64,000 nucleotides of DNA from Pegethrix bostrychoides GSE-TBD4-15B (GTDB lineage Bacteria > Cyanobacteriota > Cyanobacteriia > Elainellales > Elainellaceae): assembly GCA_019359155.1 (NCBI GenBank), contig JAHHHV010000076.1, forward strand, positions 1 through 64,000, read 5' to 3'. The notes under the pieces are model-generated. The model was not told where the DNA came from and searched no databases. It was given only the letters and a program-made list of their open reading frames with translations. The first letter of the stretch is position 1; every line of letters begins with the position of its first letter. Positions 1 to 10,355 of this stretch are shown here, in pieces. The translations under genes were made by a program, and so were the position numbers.

Positions 1-123
1 TCCTGTGAGGCTATTGAGGATGCGGGGTTTGTGCTGGACTAGGGCATAGCTGAGCATGGCAGGCTCCCAGAATCTGAGCGTCTTCTCTGATGAACATCTT
101 ACCTCTATTACAGATTAAGTCTA

Positions 124-279
124 ATGCCTTCAGAGCAAGCATTCTACGTTCTGCGGGGCGGTTCTTGGGGCGACGATCCTCGGGACTGCCGCTCTGCCTC
201 TCGCATCAACACTGATTCGGGATCCCGCGACAACCTCGACGGTTTTCGGGTTGTTTGTTCGGCATCGAGGCTCTCCTGA
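124..279 (+). pseudogene. FGE/SUMF1-type C-terminal fragment, DGR variable-region-like
   Basis: A 51-codon reading frame ends at TGA 277-279 and encodes the end of a formylglycine-generating-enzyme (FGE-sulfatase) fold: the signatures VLRGGSW, CRSA and GFRVVC appear in the family order. The N-terminal part of the family is missing, since an in-frame stop lies at 91-93 and the only ATG is at 124. Between the fixed words, codons end mostly in C or T while their first two bases vary (GGC, GAC, GAT, ATC, AAC, ACT, TCC, CTC). That is the expected outcome of adenine mutagenesis of AAC/AAT codons in diversity-generating retroelement targets of this fold. It may instead be a plain decayed gene. No reverse transcriptase or template repeat is in the window. 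Confidence 0.55.
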
Positions 280-312: not shown

Positions 313-2259
313 GTGATGGCAGTTCCGATAGGCTTAGCGCCAATGGTCGAATCTCAGACTGGTTTTTCTCAGGCCAACTTTCAAGACGAGTTTGATGTGA
401 TTGTGGTGGGCGGAGGTCATGCGGGCTGCGAAGCGGCGCTAGCTTCAGCGCGATTAGGCTGCCGCACCCTGCTGCTGACGCTCAACCTCGACAAAATTGC
501 TTGGCAGCCCTGCAATCCGGCGGTGGGCGGCCCCGCCAAGTCTCAGGTGACGCATGAAATTGATGCGCTGGGCGGCGAGCTGGGCAAAATGGCCGACCGC
601 ACCTATTTGCAAAAGCGCGTGCTCAACATCTCGCGCGGGCCAGCAGTTTGGGCGCTGCGAGCACAGACCGACAAGCGCGAATATACCTCGGTCATGAAAA
701 CAATCGTCGAAAACCAGCCCAACCTCTCCGTGCGCGAAGGCATGGTCGTCGATCTGGTGCTGAACAAAACAGGCGAAGTGGCCGGGGTAGAAACTTACTT
801 TGGCGTAGCCTTTGGCTGCAAGGCCGTGATTTTGACCACTGGCACGTTTTTGGGCGGGCGGATTTGGGTGGGGGATCGCTCAATGGCCGCAGGCCGCGCT
901 GGAGAGTTTGCCGCCGAAGGACTGACCCAGACGTTGACCCGACTCGGCTTTGAAACCGGACGGCTAAAAACCGGCACGCCCGCCCGCGTTGATCGCCGCT
1001 CGGTAGACTACAGCCAGCTTGAGCCGCAGCCCGGAGATGCCGAAGTTCGCTGGTTTAGCTATGACCCAGCAGCTTGGGTGGAGCGCGAGCAGATCCCTTG
1101 CTACCTTACCCGCACCACCCCAGAGACGCATCAGCTAATTCGAGAGAACCTGCATCTCTCGCCCGTCTACGGTGGCTGGGTGGATGCCAAAGGGCCGCGC
1201 TATTGCCCCAGCATCGAAGACAAAATCGTCCGGTTTGCCGACAAAGACTCGCACCAGATCTTTATTGAACCCGAAGGCCGCGACAGCCCCGAACTCTATA
1301 TTCAGGGATTTTCAACTGGCCTACCCGAAACGCTCCAGCTCCAAATGCTGCGGTCGCTGCCCGGTCTAGAAAACTGCGTCATGCTGCGACCCGCCTATGC
1401 GGTGGAATATGACTATCTGCCCGCCACACAGTGCTACCCGACCCTGATGACCAAAAAGATCGCAGGTCTATTTTGCGCGGGGCAGATCAACGGCACAACG
1501 GGCTACGAAGAAGCCGCCGCCCAGGGCTTGGTCGCAGGCATCAACGCCGCCAGACTGGTGCAAAACCAGCCGATGATCATTCTGCCGCGCGAGCAGAGCT
1601 ATATTGGCACGCTGCTGGATGACCTCTGCACCAAAGACCTGCGCGAGCCGTATCGGATGCTCACCTCGCGCTCAGAATATCGGCTGCTGCTGCGCTCAGA
1701 CAACGCCGATCAGCGGCTCACGCCGCTAGGCCGCGAGCTAGGGCTAATTGACGACCGCCGCTGGGGGCTATTTGAGCGCAAGCAGGCCAATATTACTGCT
1801 GAAAAAGAGCGGCTGCACGGCACCAGAATTAAAGAGCATGAGCCATTGGGGCAGCAGATTTTGGCTGAAATGCGAGAGGCGATCAAAGGCTCAATTACGC
1901 TGGCAGATCTGCTGCGTCGTCCAGGGTTTCACATGGCGGATCTAGATCGCTACGGTCTGGGAAATGCAGCTCTGTCGCAGGCAGAACGCGAAGGAGCTGA
2001 AATTGAGATCAAATATGCGGGCTATTTGCAGCGCCAGCAGAACCAGATTGATCAAGTTGCCCGCCAGACCAATCGGCCTCTGCCTGCGGATTTGGACTAC
2101 GAGGCAATCAGCACACTCTCGAAGGAATCACGCGAGAAGCTATCAAAGCTCAAGCCGCTGACGGTTGGCCAAGCGGCTCGCATCGGCGGCGTAAATCCGG
2201 CAGATATCAACGCGCTGCTGCTCCACTTAGAAGTGCAGGCGCGGATGGTGAGCGTCTAG
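313..2259 (+). CDS. mnmG: tRNA uridine-5-carboxymethylaminomethyl modification enzyme MnmG (GidA)
   Basis: FAD-dependent partner of MnmE; together they install the carboxymethylaminomethyl group on U34 of tRNAs reading NNA/NNG codons. The Rossmann glycine motif [12 protein letters not shown] lies near residue 32, followed by the family blocks [12 protein letters not shown] and [19 protein letters not shown], the latter carrying a conserved Cys near the flavin. The C-terminal helical MnmE/tRNA-binding region is complete, ending near [13 protein letters not shown]. Length 648 aa is normal. The start is uncertain: GTG 313 and ATG 316 are adjacent and an in-frame ATG at 343 would remove only a variable leader. 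It is convergent with ilvB, with 23 bp between stops and no clear hairpin. Confidence 0.97.
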
Positions 2260-2282: not shown

Positions 2283-4163
2283 CTACAGCTTCGTGCCGCA
2301 CTCCGGGCAGAACTTGTTTTGGGGCATATTTTCAGCGCCGCAGCTGCCGCAGGCCACTGGCTCAGAGGATAGCTGCTCTGGCTGCTGAGGGAGTCCCACC
2401 ATTTGGGCATTGCTCTTGCCGGGAGCCACCATCGGGTAGCAGTTTTCATCCCGCTTTACTCGCACGTCGAGCAGCACGGGGCCGCTGTGCGCCAGCATTT
2501 CGGCAATCGCGCCCTCCAGCTCGTCGCGCGCCTCGACAATCATTCCCTTCACCCCAAAGGCTTGCGCCAGCATCACAAAGTCTGGCATTCCTGGCTCCAT
2601 GTTGGAGGAAGAGTAGCGCTCGCCGTAGAAGGCTTCCTGCCACTGCCGCACCATGCCCTGCCAGCCGTTGTTGACAATCACGGTTTTGACCGCAATGCCG
2701 TATTGCCCCAGCGTTCCCAGCTCTTGGCAGTTCATCTGAAAGCTGGCATCGCCGCTAATGCAAACTACCTGTTCATTGGGCATGGCCACCTTTGCGCCCA
2801 TCGCGGCGGGCATCCCGAAGCCCATGGTTCCCAGTCCGGCGCTAGAGAGCCAGCGACGCGGCCCCATCTTCAAAAACTGCGCCGCCCACATCTGATGCTG
2901 CCCAACATCGGTGCTAAAAAAGGCGTTGGGAGCCTGACGACCCACCTCGGCAATTACTTCTTGCGGCGAAATCTGGTCAGGGTAGCTCGGAGCCAGCAAC
3001 GGGTAGTCTTTGCGCCAGCGGTCGATGCGTTGCAGCCAGCTCCGCGTCTGGTCGGGATTCACGGGCTTGCTGTCTTCTGCATCGCGCTGGAGCAGGTCAA
3101 TTAGCACCTGCCGCACATCGCCCACAATCGGCACCTCCGGGACACGGTTTTTGCCAACTTCTGCCGGGTCAATGTCGATATGGATCACCTTGGCGCGCGC
3201 CGCAAACTCGTCGAGCTTGCCCGTCACTCGGTCATCAAATCTGGCTCCTACCGCAATCAGCAAATCGCAGTCGGTGACGGCAAAGTTGGCATAGGCCGTA
3301 CCGTGCATCCCCAGCATTCCAACCGAGAGCGGGTGGTGCTCGTCAAAGATGCCCAGCCCCATCAGCGTCGTAGTTACGGGCAGGCTGTAGCGCTCGGCCA
3401 GCTCTTGCACCTCGGCATGGGCATTGGCCGAAATCGCGCCGCCACCCACATAGAGCAGCGGGCGCTCGGCTTCGCGGATCAGCTTCAGCGCCTGGATGAT
3501 CTGGCGTGGATTGCCTTTAACCGTAGGACGATAGCCGGGAAGCCGCACCTGATCTGGCTCAACCGGCAGATAGTCAAATTCCTCAACCCCGACATCTTTG
3601 GGGATGTCAATCAAGACGGGCCCCGGACGACCAGTTGCCGCAATGTGAAATGCGTCAGCCACCGTCTGCGCCATCTGACGCGGGTCGCGAACCACATAGG
3701 AATGCTTGACAATTGGCAGCGTGATCCCGTAGATGTCGGTTTCTTGAAAAGCATCACTGCCAATTGCCGGACGCGGCACCTGACCTGTGATAATCACCAT
3801 CGGGATCGAGTCCATCTGAGCGGTGGCTATCCCGGTGACCAAATTCGTCGCGCCGGGGCCAGAGGTGCCAAAGCAAACTCCGACCTTCCCGGTTGCTCGC
3901 GCATAGCCGTCGGCCGCATGAGCCGCGCCCTGTTCGTGTCGCACCAAGATGTGCCGCACATGGCCTGCTGCTTCGCTGCGGTACAGCTCGTCATAGATGG
4001 GTAGAATTGCGCCGCCGGGATAGCCAAAAATATGCTCGACCCCGTGCCGTCTGAGGCTGTCCATTAGCGCGAAAGCCCCCGTAGCGCGAGTCGGGGTGAC
4101 TTGAGGCAGGACAACCGGAGCGATCACAGGTGTTTGCAGCGGGGAGGGAAGGACTTTACGCAT
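2283..4163 (-). CDS. ilvB: Acetolactate synthase large subunit with C-terminal zinc ribbon
   Basis: Thiamine-diphosphate enzyme that condenses two pyruvates, or pyruvate with 2-ketobutyrate, in the first common step of branched-chain amino acid synthesis. The three domains are in order: N-terminal ThDP domain with the catalytic Glu in [18 protein letters not shown], central FAD-binding domain, and C-terminal ThDP domain with GDASFQMN and the downstream Asn motif for the diphosphate-Mg. At 626 aa it exceeds the usual 570-600 because about 22 residues at the C-terminus form a Cys4 ribbon (CGSCG, then CPEC). The small subunit ilvN is not in the window. An 11-bp tandem duplication sits in its leader at 4181-4202. 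Confidence 0.95.
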
Positions 4164-4482: not shown

Positions 4483-5310
4483 CTAGGCTTGGAACGCTCT
4501 GCCCGTCCCCCATTCTCGAATTTCCCAGACTCGAACCGGACAGGCTCCCCGCTGATCTGCCTGAGGTACAGTTTGCAGAACTCGCTGCTGCACCAGATCA
4601 ACCGTCAGGTCTGAAGGCGACCAGAGGGCAGTGCTTTCTCGCCAGGGCAGCGTCGAGCGCTGAATTTCCCACGGCTCTCGACCGGCTTGACATCGGCCAA
4701 ACGAGATTTCGCAGCCGAGATAGGTTTGCTGGTCTTGCAGCGTAGTCGCAGTCGCCAAACAGTCGCTCAAAGCATTTGCAGCAGGCAGGGCAACCGGACG
4801 ATTTTGGCTATAGATAAAATAGTCTCCAGCAATCACCAGACTGGCCTGCCAGGTGACATCTTCTGCACCTTCTGCCCAGACCAGTGCCGTGTAGTCGCCA
4901 GCGCCATCGTCAACTTTGCGCCACTGCTCGCGGTAGACCTGATCTACGCCGTCTTCAATCAAGATATCGTCCTGCCAGTACAGCAAGCCTAGATCTCGAT
5001 CGGGCTGCGACGGCTGATAGTCAATGTATCTCAGCCATTCACACTGGCCTTGCTTAAACTGGTCTTGCTTAAACTGAGCAATGCCTGCAAAACCCTGCTG
5101 CTGCGCCAAAGCCAGAGCCTCTTCGGAAGTGAGTGAGGCAAAGCTAGCCTGTCTGAGGTCAGGACGGTCGATCGGCAGACGCAGATCGCCAAAGCAGGCA
5201 GAGGTTTGCAGGTAAAAGACCTGCGTTTGGCTGCCAATCTGTCCATCTGCGGTTTCGATGGAAATTCGCTTCCACAGCCCTCTCAGCCAGTCAGGGACAG
5301 AACTCGTCAT
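4483..5310 (-). CDS. HRI1-like conserved protein
   Basis: A 275-aa soluble protein with no signal peptide or membrane segment. Tandem beta-rich halves, a Trp-Lys-Arg start (WKRISIE) and the block YLQTSACFGDLRLPIDRP near residues 33-50 resemble the family that includes yeast HRI1, a two-barrel lipocalin-like protein of unknown biochemical role. This family assignment comes from motif memory and is tentative; a CpcT/CpeT-type bilin lyase was considered but the expected motifs are absent. The gene carries an in-frame 15-bp duplication at 5043-5072 encoding QFKQD/QFKQG. A 15-bp unit repeated 3.5 times lies directly upstream of its ATG. It may share a transcript with the TPR gene upstream. Confidence 0.6.
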   Translation of the reverse strand: MTSSVPDWLRGLWKRISIETADGQIGSQTQVFYLQTSACFGDLRLPIDRPDLRQASFASLTSEEALALAQQQGFAGIAQFKQDQFKQGQCEWLRYIDYQPSQPDRDLGLLYWQDDILIEDGVDQVYREQWRKVDDGAGDYTALVWAEGAEDVTWQASLVIAGDYFIYSQNRPVALPAANALSDCLATATTLQDQQTYLGCEISFGRCQAGREPWEIQRSTLPWRESTALWSPSDLTVDLVQQRVLQTVPQADQRGACPVRVWEIREWGTGRAFQA

Positions 5311-5319
5311 GATTGCCTC

Positions 5320-5372
5320 GCCTCATTGGGTCTTGCCTCATTGGGTCTCGCCTCATTGGGTCTCGCCTCATT
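5320..5372. repeat. 15-bp tandem repeat, 3.5 copies, at a start codon
   Basis: The unit GCCTCATTGGGTCTC occurs at 5320, 5335 and 5350 with a partial copy from 5365. It fills most of the 76-bp spacer between the TPR gene and the HRI1-like gene and ends 9 bp from the latter's ATG. Confidence 0.92.
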
Positions 5373-5386
5373 CCTGAGCAGGCTGA

Positions 5387-6787
5387 TTACTGAGTAGCTT
5401 GCTGGATCTGAGCGTCAAAATACTCGACTCGGTACTTCAACTGCTGAGCAATCTGTAGCCCTTGCTGAAATGCCGCCACCGCCTGCGCCCGTTCACCCTC
5501 TAGCTGATAGAGCTGCCCAATCTGGTCATAGGTGTTCATCATGCCAAACGAGTTGTAAGACTGGCGGTTCACATCTAGCAAGAGCTGATAGACGACCAGC
5601 GCATCCGCAGGGCGATTCAGCGTCTGATAGAGCTGGGCGAGCCGCTGGAGCGCATCAGCGGCATAGGCATATTGCTGCACCGAGCGAGCGACCGCAAAAG
5701 CCTCTTGATAACTGGTTGCAGCCATGTCCGGTCGATTCAACTGGGCATGGCTGTCCCCCATTGCCAGCTTAATCGCCGGAATCGGGACAAAATTATTTTG
5801 CTTTTGGTAAAGTTCGACGAGCTGTTGCTGCGCGGCAATCGCCTGCTCCGGCTGACTGTTTTCCTGGTAGATCTCCGCGAGCTGAGTCAGCGCCTCGACT
5901 TCCTGCTGGCGATTGTCGGTAGCGCGAGCGAGCGTTAGCAGCTCTTCGTAGGTGAGTGCCGCATTCGGATAGTCAAACCAGGCCAGCTGAATCTCGGCTA
6001 GCGCCAGCAAAATCTGCTGCTGCTGAGCCGTATCCTGCCGCCGCTTAGCGCGCTCAAACAGCGTTGAATAGAGCGCTACTGCCTGATTGCGAGCCCGAAC
6101 TTGCTGATAGGCCTGGGCAATTTCCAGCAGCAGGTCATAGTCGATCTCGGCGGGCGGCTGGGTGGGCGGCTGGCCTGGAGCATCATCAGGTGCGGCATCA
6201 GGCGCAGCATCAGGCGCAGGCTGGTTCCCCGGCAGTCCAGGCAGGCCAAGCGGCAGTCCGGCCTCCTGCTGAATCTGCTCCAGACGCAGCGTGATGAACC
6301 GCAGCTCAACGCTCTGGCTCTCGCGCCAAGCCACGGCTCCGACTCGCGCCAGTGCTGCAACCTCTTCACGCGGACTCAGATAGCGCCGCAGCCGCAGATC
6401 GCGGTTGAACAGCTCCCAGGCTCCCGGCAGATCTCCCGCCGCTAGCTTTGCCTCTGCCTGCGCTTGCAGTTCGGCCAGAGCCGCCCGCAACAGGTCTTTC
6501 TCCTGCGGACTCAGCGGCCGATCCACCACCAGTTCGGGCAGCAGCGGGTCGGGCTGTGGCTCCAGCGGATTGATCGTCGGGTCAAGCGCAGGCGGGGAGG
6601 CTGCCGGATCTGTGGCATCTGGGCTGGTAGGCGGGTTTGGATCTGCCGCCGGGTCGAGTTCCTGAGCCAAAGCTGGAGTCAAGATTGGGCTAACCCCAAT
6701 CGACCAGCCGAGGCTGAGCGCGCAGAAAGCCAGCAGCAGTGAATTACGGGGTCGTAGCGGGAAGAGTCTGAAGCAGAGTTGTCGCAT
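5387..6787 (-). CDS. Exported tetratricopeptide-repeat protein
   Basis: The preferred start at 6787 gives 466 aa; the longer frame would overlap purD and adds a non-conserved leader. The N-terminus, MRQLCFRLFPLRPRNS followed by a hydrophobic stretch and ALAQ, is a signal peptide. A Pro/Asp/Ala-rich linker follows (about residues 40-95), then a charged helical section, another Pro/Asp linker containing repeated APDA units, and at least five TPR-like helical pairs to the C-terminus. TPRs are protein-protein docking modules, so the product probably acts as an envelope or periplasmic scaffold. Specific partners cannot be named. It is divergent from purD. Confidence 0.8.
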   Translation of the reverse strand: MRQLCFRLFPLRPRNSLLLAFCALSLGWSIGVSPILTPALAQELDPAADPNPPTSPDATDPAASPPALDPTINPLEPQPDPLLPELVVDRPLSPQEKDLLRAALAELQAQAEAKLAAGDLPGAWELFNRDLRLRRYLSPREEVAALARVGAVAWRESQSVELRFITLRLEQIQQEAGLPLGLPGLPGNQPAPDAAPDAAPDDAPGQPPTQPPAEIDYDLLLEIAQAYQQVRARNQAVALYSTLFERAKRRQDTAQQQQILLALAEIQLAWFDYPNAALTYEELLTLARATDNRQQEVEALTQLAEIYQENSQPEQAIAAQQQLVELYQKQNNFVPIPAIKLAMGDSHAQLNRPDMAATSYQEAFAVARSVQQYAYAADALQRLAQLYQTLNRPADALVVYQLLLDVNRQSYNSFGMMNTYDQIGQLYQLEGERAQAVAAFQQGLQIAQQLKYRVEYFDAQIQQATQ

Positions 6788-6903
6788 AAAATTTGCAGCG
6801 TCATGCGTTGAGCATGAATCAAAGCGCCATCTCGATGGTATGACATAATCTTGGTACGACATCTTGTTACAGCAGTTTAGTTCCGCCTGAGCAATCAAGA
6901 ATT

Positions 6904-6962
6904 TGCCAAAATTTGCTAGAACCCAGTGCCAAAATTTGCCAAAATCCAGAACTCTGCCAAAA
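6904..6962. promoter_or_regulatory. Four TGCCAAAA boxes upstream of purD
   Basis: TGCCAAAA occurs at 6904, 6927, 6937 and 6955 in the spacer shared by the TPR gene and purD. Two boxes sit inside the longer word AAATTTGCCAAAAT. The clustering just before the purD GTG suggests a regulator site or a degenerate repeat; no known cyanobacterial regulator is matched. Confidence 0.4.
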
Positions 6963-7012
6963 CATGAAAATCTCGAACAGTTTTTCAGATATCTGCCAGT
7001 GAGGGGGAGCTT

Positions 7013-8293
7013 GTGAAAGTCATGGTAATCGGCAGCGGTGGGCGCGAACATGCGCTGGCCTGGAAACTGCTTCAGTCTGAGGCTGTGCAGGAGGTGTTTT
7101 GCATTCCAGGCAATGGCGGCACGGCTCTGCTGCCTCGCTGTCGCAATCTAGCTATGACCCTAGATGACTATGAAGGCATTAGTCGGCTGGCGCTAGTGAA
7201 CAATATTGGGCTGATTGTGATTGGCCCAGAAGTGCCGCTGGCAGACGGCATCACCGACCATCTGCTGGCTCAGAACCTGACTGTATTTGGCCCCACTCAG
7301 GCCGGTGCCCAAATCGAAGCCAGCAAAGCCTGGGCAAAGGCGCTGATGACCGAAGCCCAAATCCCAACTGCGGCAGCCCAAACCTTCGAGGCTGTGGCTG
7401 CGGCCATCAACTACGTGACGGCGCAAAAGCTGCCGATTGTCATCAAGGCAGATGGTCTAGCTGCGGGCAAAGGCGTGACGGTAGCAGCGACGCTGGATGA
7501 GGCGATTGAGGCGATTGAGCGCTGCTTTAGCGGCCAGTTTGGCGCAGCTGGAGCCCGCGTTGTGATTGAAGACTGTTTGCTCGGTCAAGAAGCCTCGCTG
7601 CTGGCTGTCACTGACGGAGTGACGATTCGCCCCCTGCTGCCCGCTCAAGACCACAAGCGGATTGGCGAGGGCGACAGCGGCGCCAATACAGGCGGTATGG
7701 GAGCCTACGCCCCAGCTCCGATTGTCACGCCTGAGCTGATGCAAAAAATTCAGCAGCAGGTGCTAGAGCCAGCCCTAGCTGCCCTCCAACGACGGGGGAT
7801 TGACTACCGAGGGGTGCTCTATGCGGGGCTGATGATTTCGCCAGAGGGCCAACTTAACGTGATTGAATTCAACTGTCGGTTTGGCGATCCTGAAACCCAA
7901 GTCGTGCTGCCCCTGCTCGAAACACCGTTAGCGGCTTTGCTGTTGGCCTGCGCTCAGCAGCGGCTCGCTCAGTTTCCACCGCTCAAATGGCGCTCAGAGG
8001 TGGCAGTCTGCGTCGTGGCGGCAGCTCCGGGCTACCCGGATCAGTATCCCAAAGGCGCGGTGATTACCGGGTTAGAAGCTGCTGCTGCCGCTGGAGCCAC
8101 CGTGTTTCATGCGGGTACCCGGCTGAAGCAAGCCCTAGTGACGGACGGCGGGCGGGTGCTGGGCGTGACGGCAACCGGGGCAGATCTGGAGGCAGCGCTG
8201 CAAAAAGTTTATCTGGCCATGCAGGAAATTCGGTTTGAGGGCATGTATTACCGCAAAGACATTGGACATCTGGCGCTGAAAGCCGAAGCCTAG
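7013..8293 (+). CDS. purD: Phosphoribosylamine-glycine ligase (GAR synthetase)
   Basis: ATP-dependent ligation of glycine to 5-phosphoribosylamine, the second step of purine synthesis. The 426-aa protein has the N-terminal Rossmann-like domain (MVIGSGGREHALAWKL), the ATP-grasp domain with IVIKADGLAAGKGV, the signature NTGGMGAYAP and the metal-binding FNCRFGDPE, and a small C-terminal domain. Length and domain order are normal. The start is GTG at 7013, which places the conserved MKVMVIGSGG at the N-terminus. It is transcribed away from the TPR gene and stands alone, as purine genes usually do in cyanobacteria. Confidence 0.97.
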   Translation: MKVMVIGSGGREHALAWKLLQSEAVQEVFCIPGNGGTALLPRCRNLAMTLDDYEGISRLALVNNIGLIVIGPEVPLADGITDHLLAQNLTVFGPTQAGAQIEASKAWAKALMTEAQIPTAAAQTFEAVAAAINYVTAQKLPIVIKADGLAAGKGVTVAATLDEAIEAIERCFSGQFGAAGARVVIEDCLLGQEASLLAVTDGVTIRPLLPAQDHKRIGEGDSGANTGGMGAYAPAPIVTPELMQKIQQQVLEPALAALQRRGIDYRGVLYAGLMISPEGQLNVIEFNCRFGDPETQVVLPLLETPLAALLLACAQQRLAQFPPLKWRSEVAVCVVAAAPGYPDQYPKGAVITGLEAAAAAGATVFHAGTRLKQALVTDGGRVLGVTATGADLEAALQKVYLAMQEIRFEGMYYRKDIGHLALKAEA

Positions 8294-8386
8294 AGCCGCC
8301 ACGAGGCCCTGTATGTGAAGCTGGCGCAGGCGGAGTTCTATGGTGCTCTGTTCAACTCCTAATTCTTGATTTGGCAACTGCTGGAG

Positions 8387-9496
8387 ATGAACCTATTTGT
8401 TCTATCAGAACTAAAAGCTGGCTACACGCAGGTGGGCTGGACAATTAATCGAAGTTTCGAGTCGGCTCTAGCTGAGCTATTTAAGCCAACTTTCATTTAT
8501 CCAGTCGGCAACCCTCTAGCGCAGCAGGCTCGGATCATTGGCCGAACGCTGGGCTTTCGGCCTGAGCGAGTTGAGTTTTTGGAGCGCTGTGCCCATCGGC
8601 TGAAGCCGCACTACAGCATCCCAGAGCTGCCGATTCTGCCTCAGGGACAGGGGCCAAATCTGCTGCTCGTGGTGGGGCTGCTGCCCGAATTCTTGTTCGC
8701 GATCCAGACCCTAGAGCCGCTGCTGAGCCAGTTTGACCTACGGCTTGCCTATCTGCTAGACAGCTTTGCTCCCAGCTGGCTCACGCCATCTCTGCTGCCG
8801 CAGTTTGATCATTTGTTTGTGATGAGCAGCGAGCTGGCTGATGCCGTCCAGCCACTCGGTATTTCTACCTCTTTTTTGCCGCTGGGGATTAAAACAGATG
8901 GCTTCAAGGTGCATGATCCCCGCTGGATAGATGTGATCAACTACGGCAGAAGCAATCCCGCCATGCATCAGCAGTTACAGAGCCAGTTCAACCAGCCGGA
9001 CAGCTCGCGTCTTTATTTTCATTCGACCTTTAGCTGCGCTGAAGTGTTTGACCAGCGAGAGCACGACATGCTGATGGGCAAGCTGTTGAGTCAGTCTAAA
9101 ATTAGCCTCTGCTTTGAAGCCAGTCAGCTCCGCAGATTTTGGGGCAGCTCGCCGCTGCTCTATCGCTGGCTAGAAGCCTGGGCAGCGGGCTGCACTATAG
9201 TCGGGAAAAAGCCGTTTGGGGCGGGAGTGGCCGAGCTGATGGACTGGCCAAATAGCGCCATCGATCTGCCTGAAGCACCTGCCGACTGGCTACCGATGAT
9301 TGAAATGCTGCTGGATGATACCGCTTTGCTTGCCCAAAACGCTCAGCGCAACCGCCAGGAATGCCTGCTGCGTCACGACTGGCGCTACCGCATCAAAACA
9401 ATGCTGGAGACAGTTGATCTGCCGATTCCAGAGGCGCTGAGCGGGCAAATTGCTGACTTACAGATACAGTCATCCAGATCCAGTCATCTGGGCTAA
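8387..9496 (+). CDS. Glycosyltransferase-like protein (GT-B, group 1 type)
   Basis: The ATG at 8387, preceded directly by GGAG, gives 369 aa; a TTG at 8366 would add seven residues. The N-terminal half alternates hydrophobic strands and helices as in a GT-B Rossmann domain. The C-terminal half has YRWLEAWAAGCTIVGKKPFG and a following acidic loop, which resembles the nucleotide-sugar binding end of group 1 glycosyltransferases. No signal peptide is present, so it would act in the cytosol or at the membrane surface. Donor and acceptor are unknown. It follows purD in the same direction by 93 bp and converges with fghA, 7 bp away. Confidence 0.65.
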   Translation: MNLFVLSELKAGYTQVGWTINRSFESALAELFKPTFIYPVGNPLAQQARIIGRTLGFRPERVEFLERCAHRLKPHYSIPELPILPQGQGPNLLLVVGLLPEFLFAIQTLEPLLSQFDLRLAYLLDSFAPSWLTPSLLPQFDHLFVMSSELADAVQPLGISTSFLPLGIKTDGFKVHDPRWIDVINYGRSNPAMHQQLQSQFNQPDSSRLYFHSTFSCAEVFDQREHDMLMGKLLSQSKISLCFEASQLRRFWGSSPLLYRWLEAWAAGCTIVGKKPFGAGVAELMDWPNSAIDLPEAPADWLPMIEMLLDDTALLAQNAQRNRQECLLRHDWRYRIKTMLETVDLPIPEALSGQIADLQIQSSRSSHLG

Positions 9497-9503
9497 ATCT
9501 CGG

Positions 9504-10355
9504 CTAGCTGCGCCACAGCCGCTCTGCATGATGCCGCATGTGATCAGCCATGAAGCTGGCGATAAAGTAGTAGCTGTGGTCGTAGTCGGGCTGGATTCGC
9601 AGCTCTAGCGACTGATTCACTTGAGCGCAGGCTTGCTGAAATAGCTCTGGCTTCAGCTGCGGCTCTAAAAACGGGTCAGCGCTGCCTTGATCAATCAAAA
9701 TCAGGTGGTCTAGCTGCTGACTCAGCACAAGCTCGCTAGCATCGTAGGCTTTCCAGCTCTGCGGGTCTGCACCCAAATAGTGACTGAAAGCCTTTTGCCC
9801 CCAAGGACAGCGCATTGGAGCCGCGATGGGGGCAAACGCCGACACTGAGACATATTGGCTAGGCTGCTTGAGCGCAGAGATTAGCGCCCCATGCCCGCCC
9901 ATTGAATGGCCAAAGATGCCCTGTCGCTCAGGCCGCACAGCAAAATGCTGGCGGATCAAGTGGGGCAGCTCGCAGGTGACGTAGCTGTACAGGCTGTAGT
10001 GGTTTGACCAAGGGGACTGGGTGGCATCAACGTAAAACCCAGCGCCGCTGCCCAGATCCCAGCTGTCGGCTTCACCGGGCGTGGCGTTGTTGCGTGGGCT
10101 GGTGTCGGGGGCAACCAGCATCAGGCCATGCTGAGCGGCGAGGCGCTGTGCCCCGGCTTTGGACATAAAGTTTTCTTCGGTGCAGGTGAGTCCTGAGAGA
10201 TAGTAGAGCACTGGCACTGACTCAGAGGCGGCCTGGGGCGGCAGATAGACCGAAAACCGCATCTCGGTGCGGCAGGTGGAAGAGGCATGTTTGTAAAATT
10301 CCTGCTGGCCGCCAAAGCAGCGGGTTTGGCTGACGCGCTCTAGTGCAGATGCCAT
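9504..10355 (-). CDS. fghA: S-formylglutathione hydrolase
   Basis: Serine esterase that releases formate and glutathione from S-formylglutathione, the second step of glutathione-dependent formaldehyde oxidation. The 283-aa protein shows the esterase D family blocks: YYLSGLTCTEENF for the oxyanion hole, the nucleophile in GHSMGGHGA, the acid in IDQGSADPFL, and the terminal His in DYDHSYYFIASF. It follows adhC with a 47-bp gap on the same strand, which supports a two-gene operon and the assignment. Confidence 0.96.
   Translation of the reverse strand: MASALERVSQTRCFGGQQEFYKHASSTCRTEMRFSVYLPPQAASESVPVLYYLSGLTCTEENFMSKAGAQRLAAQHGLMLVAPDTSPRNNATPGEADSWDLGSGAGFYVDATQSPWSNHYSLYSYVTCELPHLIRQHFAVRPERQGIFGHSMGGHGALISALKQPSQYVSVSAFAPIAAPMRCPWGQKAFSHYLGADPQSWKAYDASELVLSQQLDHLILIDQGSADPFLEPQLKPELFQQACAQVNQSLELRIQPDYDHSYYFIASFMADHMRHHAERLWRS

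What the first reader, a model, noticed from the sequence alone, without database searches (positions are those of the whole stretch)
124..279. Orphan FGE C-terminus resembling a DGR variable region
The fragment has the fixed words VLRGGSW, CRSA and GFRVVC. Codons between them keep C or T at position 3 while positions 1 and 2 vary, as expected if AAC/AAT codons in a template were changed at adenines. Cyanobacterial diversity-generating retroelements commonly target this fold. A template repeat and reverse transcriptase could lie just left of the window or elsewhere, with this as a remote target.
Basis: partly seen in the sequence, partly recalled or inferred. Interest (0 to 1): 0.6.

Follow-up and report, generated by a model that had tools for sequence, protein, structure and literature searches.

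The report
Orphaned hypermutation target tail, transposon-cut
The fragment is the broken-off tail of a sensor-like cyanobacterial gene that was once rewritten by a mutagenic retroelement (a DGR); a jumping gene has cut it, and the template that wrote it is no longer found in the genome, so it is a fossil of a known kind of system.

Summary
Window 125-279 is the last ~50 codons of an FGE-sulfatase/C-type-lectin-fold gene, with the stated motifs and NNC/NNT codons at all aligned variable sites. It is "orphan" because window 1-124 is the terminal part of a DDE_Tnp_4 (IS5-like) insertion sequence, whose inverted repeat ends at base 124; the ATG at 124 is a junction artefact.

The DGR reading is right in kind, with one correction. 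The genome has one intact DGR (contig C44: reverse transcriptase, bAvd, A-rich template, two FGE targets; all but one mismatch per target fall on template adenines). The window fragment is not a product of that template: it also differs at 19 of 90 non-adenine sites. Its silent "dialect" instead matches two remote caspase-FGE genes in the same genome (C64, C2), one in a congener, and, best of all templates examined, the template of an Oculatellaceae DGR (12/24 adenine versus 9/69 non-adenine mismatches).

No template of that dialect, and no second DGR reverse transcriptase, is in the 99.97%-complete assembly. It is most likely a dead target of a lost or unassembled DGR lineage. Remote and remnant targets, and transposon decay of DGRs, are published for cyanobacteria and other bacteria: a new member of a known kind.

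The parts
1..124 (-). Terminal part of a DDE_Tnp_4 (IS5-like) insertion sequence: transposase N-terminus (ATG near 59, reading leftwards) and the terminal inverted repeat ending at 124; the contig starts inside this repeat
   Evidence: 98% identical to the end of contig C33; the two flanks diverge after TCTAA(T); TIR TTAGACTTAATC matches the other IS end on C69; C69 transposase hits PF13359
125..279 (+). Truncated 3' end of an FGE-sulfatase (C-type-lectin fold) gene, stop TGA at 277-279; pseudogene remnant
   Evidence: PF03781 positions 210-254; no upstream half found in the assembly
151..270 (+). Former DGR variable region (VR), from CTG CGG GGC to the GFRVVCSASR region
   Evidence: aligns with template repeats of C44 and G013
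169..240 (+). Mutable core: GGC GAC GAT .. GAC .. ATC AAC ACT GAT .. GAC AAC CTC GAC, where related templates carry AAC/AAT
   Evidence: codon alignment, third-base test
313..2259 (+). mnmG (gidA), the intact neighbour downstream; not part of the element, used for synteny
   Evidence: ORF; 86% DNA identity in the nearest congener, which has no FGE gene in front of mnmG

Best explanation
The fragment is the dead tail of an FGE/C-type-lectin sensor-type gene, probably of the caspase-FGE family still present intact at C64 and C2. Its 3' variable region was once rewritten by a DGR: template RNA was copied by an error-prone reverse transcriptase that misreads adenines, and the cDNA replaced the target's 3' segment, so AAC/AAT codons became NNC/NNT. 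The template that wrote it belonged to a lineage different from the one DGR that survives in this genome (C44) and is now lost or unassembled. After diversification stopped, silent changes accumulated. An IS5-like element then inserted at base 124/125 and separated the tail from the rest of its gene. Shown: the fold, the codon signature, the mismatch with the resident template, the shared template dialect with C64, C2, G003 and G013, and the IS boundary. Inferred: that the template and reverse transcriptase were lost rather than missed, the caspase-FGE parentage, and the order of events.
For: Resident DGR on C44 is classical: bAvd (72 bits, PF22296), RVT_1, RT motif GLPIGNLTSQ, and VRs with 16/30 and 17/30 adenine but 1/93 non-adenine mismatches. 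Window versus that TR: 15/28 A, 19/90 non-A. Of the N-rich template-like segments in the fetched loci, the G013 C425 TR is the best match for W (12/24 A, 9/69 non-A) and also for C64a, C2 and G003, and it sits beside a DGR RT. VR third-codon positions are conserved although the same genes diverged upstream: C64a-G003 4/36 versus 128/228 (P = 2e-7); W-C64a 6/36 and W-G003 9/36 against the same upstream rate (P = 7e-6, 4e-4). Non-DGR control FGE C49 shows no such effect (P = 0.22). Only two RTs in the genome, the other a group II intron maturase (347 bits). IS boundary.
Against: Third-base conservation for W alone against the G013 TR is modest once amino acids are fixed (11/14 same, expected 5.8, P = 0.003). 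The G013 template is the best of several dozen tested and lies in another genus. The assembly is a 92-contig draft, and short repeats such as TRs can be lost. The N-terminal part of the gene is not available.
Confidence: 0.8

Rival explanations
1. Live remote target: a second DGR with a matching template exists in the cell but falls into assembly gaps, and still diversifies this locus.
For: Draft assembly of 92 contigs; DGR repeats and IS elements break assemblies; the C44 contig ends 0.7 kb after its TR. Trans-acting DGRs on remote targets are published (PMC10907252).
Against: No second DGR RT in a 99.97%-complete assembly. W, C64a and C2 disagree with each other at third codon positions (W-C64a 6, W-C2 12, C64a-C2 10 of 36 codons), so no single present template wrote all of them. 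The target gene is cut by an IS.
Confidence: 0.1
2. Ordinary FGE paralogue: the pattern is only the natural variability of a surface loop in the FGE fold, with no DGR ever involved.
For: The fixed words are part of the FGE family consensus; the fragment is short; any FGE compared with a template shows some adenine bias because variable loop positions are coded AAY (C64b).
Against: Third bases at amino-acid-changing codons are kept (2/11, 2/15) against 66/92 in upstream FGE sequence and against 9/24 kept in the VR segment of a non-DGR FGE (C64a-C49: 15/24 differ); VR silent divergence is far below upstream silent divergence.
Confidence: 0.07
3. Old product of the resident C44 DGR whose template has since drifted.
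For: The C44 TR is recognisably homologous (70% identity).
Against: The dialect matches the G013 template better than the C44 template for W, C64a, C2 and G003, a congener. The C44 TR still matches its own two targets at 92/93 non-adenine positions.
Confidence: 0.03

Closest known systems
Cyanobacterial DGR remote variable proteins, e.g. Nostoc PCC 7120 all3226 (Vallota-Eastman et al. 2020, PMC7517822)
   Same: C-type-lectin target gene away from any reverse transcriptase, with remnant template homology at its 3' end; transposases nearby
   Different: here the gene is truncated by an IS and the matching template is absent, while a different DGR is intact in the genome
Thiohalocapsa PB-PSB1 incomplete DGRs (Dore et al. 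2024, PMC10907252)
   Same: FGE-type targets, transposon-mediated decay of DGR parts, targets without their own RT or template
   Different: several of those still match a template at all non-adenine sites; this one does not
DGR of Oculatellaceae cyanobacterium Prado106 (G013 contig C425)
   Same: closest template dialect found for the window fragment
   Different: intact, in another genus; 9/69 non-adenine differences
TvpA, Treponema denticola DGR variable protein (PDB 2y3c)
   Same: C-terminal FGE/CLec variable segment aligns with the fragment's profile (E 1.2e-4)
   Different: a complete DGR variable protein of a spirochaete, very distant in sequence

Membership tests
DGR variable region (target) | 3'-terminal segment of a C-type-lectin/FGE-fold gene | tested here: met
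   PF03781 C-terminal match; profile matches DGR protein TvpA
DGR variable region (target) | Mismatches to a template concentrated at template adenines | tested here: met
   12/24 A versus 9/69 non-A against the G013 template; 15/28 versus 19/90 against the resident one
DGR variable region (target) | Identity at non-adenine positions with a template in the same genome (active or recent target) | tested here: not met
   19/90 non-A mismatches to the only intact own template; no other template of that dialect
DGR variable region (target) | DGR reverse transcriptase (SQ motif) and Avd in the genome | tested here: met
   C44 RT with IGNLTSQ and bAvd; it serves a different template
DGR variable region (target) | Initiation-of-mutagenic-homing element matching the template 3' end | tested here: not met
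   GGTTTTCGGGTTGTTTGTTCGGCATCGAGG versus GGTTTTCGGGTTGTCTCTTCCGCCTCCAG in the own TR: several differences
DGR variable region (target) | Observed hypervariation in a population | not testable with these tools
   one genome per species is held
IS5-like (DDE_Tnp_4) insertion sequence, window 1-124 | DDE transposase and terminal inverted repeats | tested here: met
   PF13359 on the C69 end; TIR TTAGACTTAATC on both ends
IS5-like (DDE_Tnp_4) insertion sequence, window 1-124 | Target-site duplication | tested here: inconclusive
   which right end pairs with this left end is not resolved in the draft

The most novel reading that the evidence does not exclude
The genome records DGR template turnover. 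At least three template lineages (C44 live; the C87 template fossil with the C64b target; the lost one behind window/C64a/C2) wrote FGE sensors one after another, and each loss froze its targets as fixed receptors, so third-codon 'dialects' can reconstruct extinct templates.
Probability: 0.45. Interest if true: 0.5.

Novelty: new member of a known kind. Interest (0 to 1): 0.3.

Why it matters
It shows that a DGR-written segment can be recognised after its template and most of its gene are gone, by frozen third codon positions. That gives a way to count extinct diversity-generating systems in genomes and to ask whether cyanobacteria fix successful receptors by discarding the template. The fragment itself is dead and ordinary.

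Tried and rejected
Looked for a near-identical A-rich copy in the own genome with the window DNA, the C44 template and the G013 template: only C44, C64, C2 and the C87 fossil appeared. Looked for the missing upstream half through all FGE domains: none truncated at the right point. Followed the IS to its other end on C69: the flank there is not FGE sequence, and neither the C69 nor the C33 flanking genes were found next to mnmG in relatives. The nearest congener has ygfZ and a thioesterase before mnmG; their homologues in this genome lie inside contig C17. The second RT (C56) was rejected as a DGR RT: group II intron maturase with a QGxxxSP motif. A raw adenine-bias test alone was judged insufficient, because FGE genes without a clear template also show it; third-base conservation against upstream sequence was used instead.

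Full report
What is there. The window is the start of contig C78 of a 5.72-Mb cyanobacterial genome in 92 contigs. One genome placed in the same genus by the tool (G001) appears to be Elainella saxicola E1: contig LUGL01000238.1 has the same length, 37,942 bases. Bases 124-279 read as 51 residues with the stated motifs and match the last 45 positions of Pfam FGE-sulfatase. Bases 1-125 are 98% identical to the end of contig C33, and the two flanks diverge after TCTAA(T). C33 carries the N-terminus of a transposase, and contig C69 ends in the C-terminal part of a DDE_Tnp_4 transposase of the same kind. The IS ends share the inverted repeat TTAGACTTAATC, which puts the boundary at base 124. The fragment is therefore a gene tail cut by an insertion sequence, and the contig breaks there because the element is repeated.

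Is there a DGR? Yes. Contig C44 holds a classical one: a 677-aa and a 286-aa FGE target, bAvd, a 370-aa reverse transcriptase with the SQ motif, and an A-rich template. Its targets differ from the template at 16/30 and 17/30 adenines and at one of 93 other positions. The neighbouring CHAT, AAA ATPase and VWA genes resemble the VMAP-type conflict systems described for such DGRs (PMC10907252). The only other RVT_1 gene is a group II intron maturase.

Is the fragment its target? Not a current one. It differs at 15/28 adenine and 19/90 other positions. Its silent sites match instead C64a (590 aa) and C2 (616 aa), which are caspase-FGE genes in the same genome, and C200 of congener G003. Among the N-rich template-like segments in the fetched loci, the template of G013 C425 is the closest to all four; G013 C425 has its own RT and two targets.

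Does the signature mean a DGR? In codons where the amino acid differs, third bases differ in 0/13 (C64a-G003), 2/11 (W-C64a) and 2/15 (W-G003), compared with 66/92 in the upstream FGE sequence of C64a-G003. Silent divergence over the whole VR is 4/36 versus 128/228 upstream for C64a-G003. A canonical FGE, C49, shows no such effect. Protein-level selection does not explain changed first and second bases with frozen third bases, nor a VR silently younger than the rest of its gene; templated rewriting of AAY codons does. For W only ten codons upstream of the VR survive, so the comparison uses the upstream rate of its relatives. W compared with C2 is weaker (7/16, P = 0.06), consistent with age.

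A second fossil. C87:15240-15341 is an A-rich, non-coding template remnant. It resembles the VR of the 1148-aa FGE gene C64b at 67 aligned positions, with 9/19 adenine and 6/48 other mismatches (P = 0.004). The genome thus seems to have held at least three template lineages, of which one remains whole.

Literature. Remote variable proteins, remnants without RT, and nearby transposases are described in cyanobacteria (PMC7517822). Transposon decay of DGRs and trans action are described in Thiohalocapsa (PMC10907252). The finding is a further case of these, with a truncated target and an absent template.

Noticed in passing
L096 (G000:C87) 3240-3345: A-rich, Asn-rich non-coding fragment that looks like a truncated DGR template, matching the variable region of the 1148-aa FGE gene on C64 (L021 1929-2045, minus); no RT nearby.
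   Followed up: partly
L017 (G000:C44) 4576-10140: Intact DGR: two FGE targets, bAvd, RT, template, with an HNH-endonuclease ORF (7119-7520) between the first target and Avd; CHAT, AAA and VWA genes upstream.
   Followed up: partly
L018 2739-4511 (C64) and L019 1635-3485 (C2): Two intact caspase-FGE genes with DGR-like variable regions and no matching template; the C2 copy lies about 1.5 kb from a Rubisco large-subunit-like gene.
   Followed up: partly
L022 (G000:C56) 308-2044: Group II intron reverse transcriptase/maturase.
   Followed up: yes
L110 2320-4284 (G030 contig C20): Four FGE variable-region-like segments in 2 kb, one A-rich and template-like but with its 3' part already equal to a target (NDYIGFRV), perhaps a partly overwritten template.
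   Followed up: no
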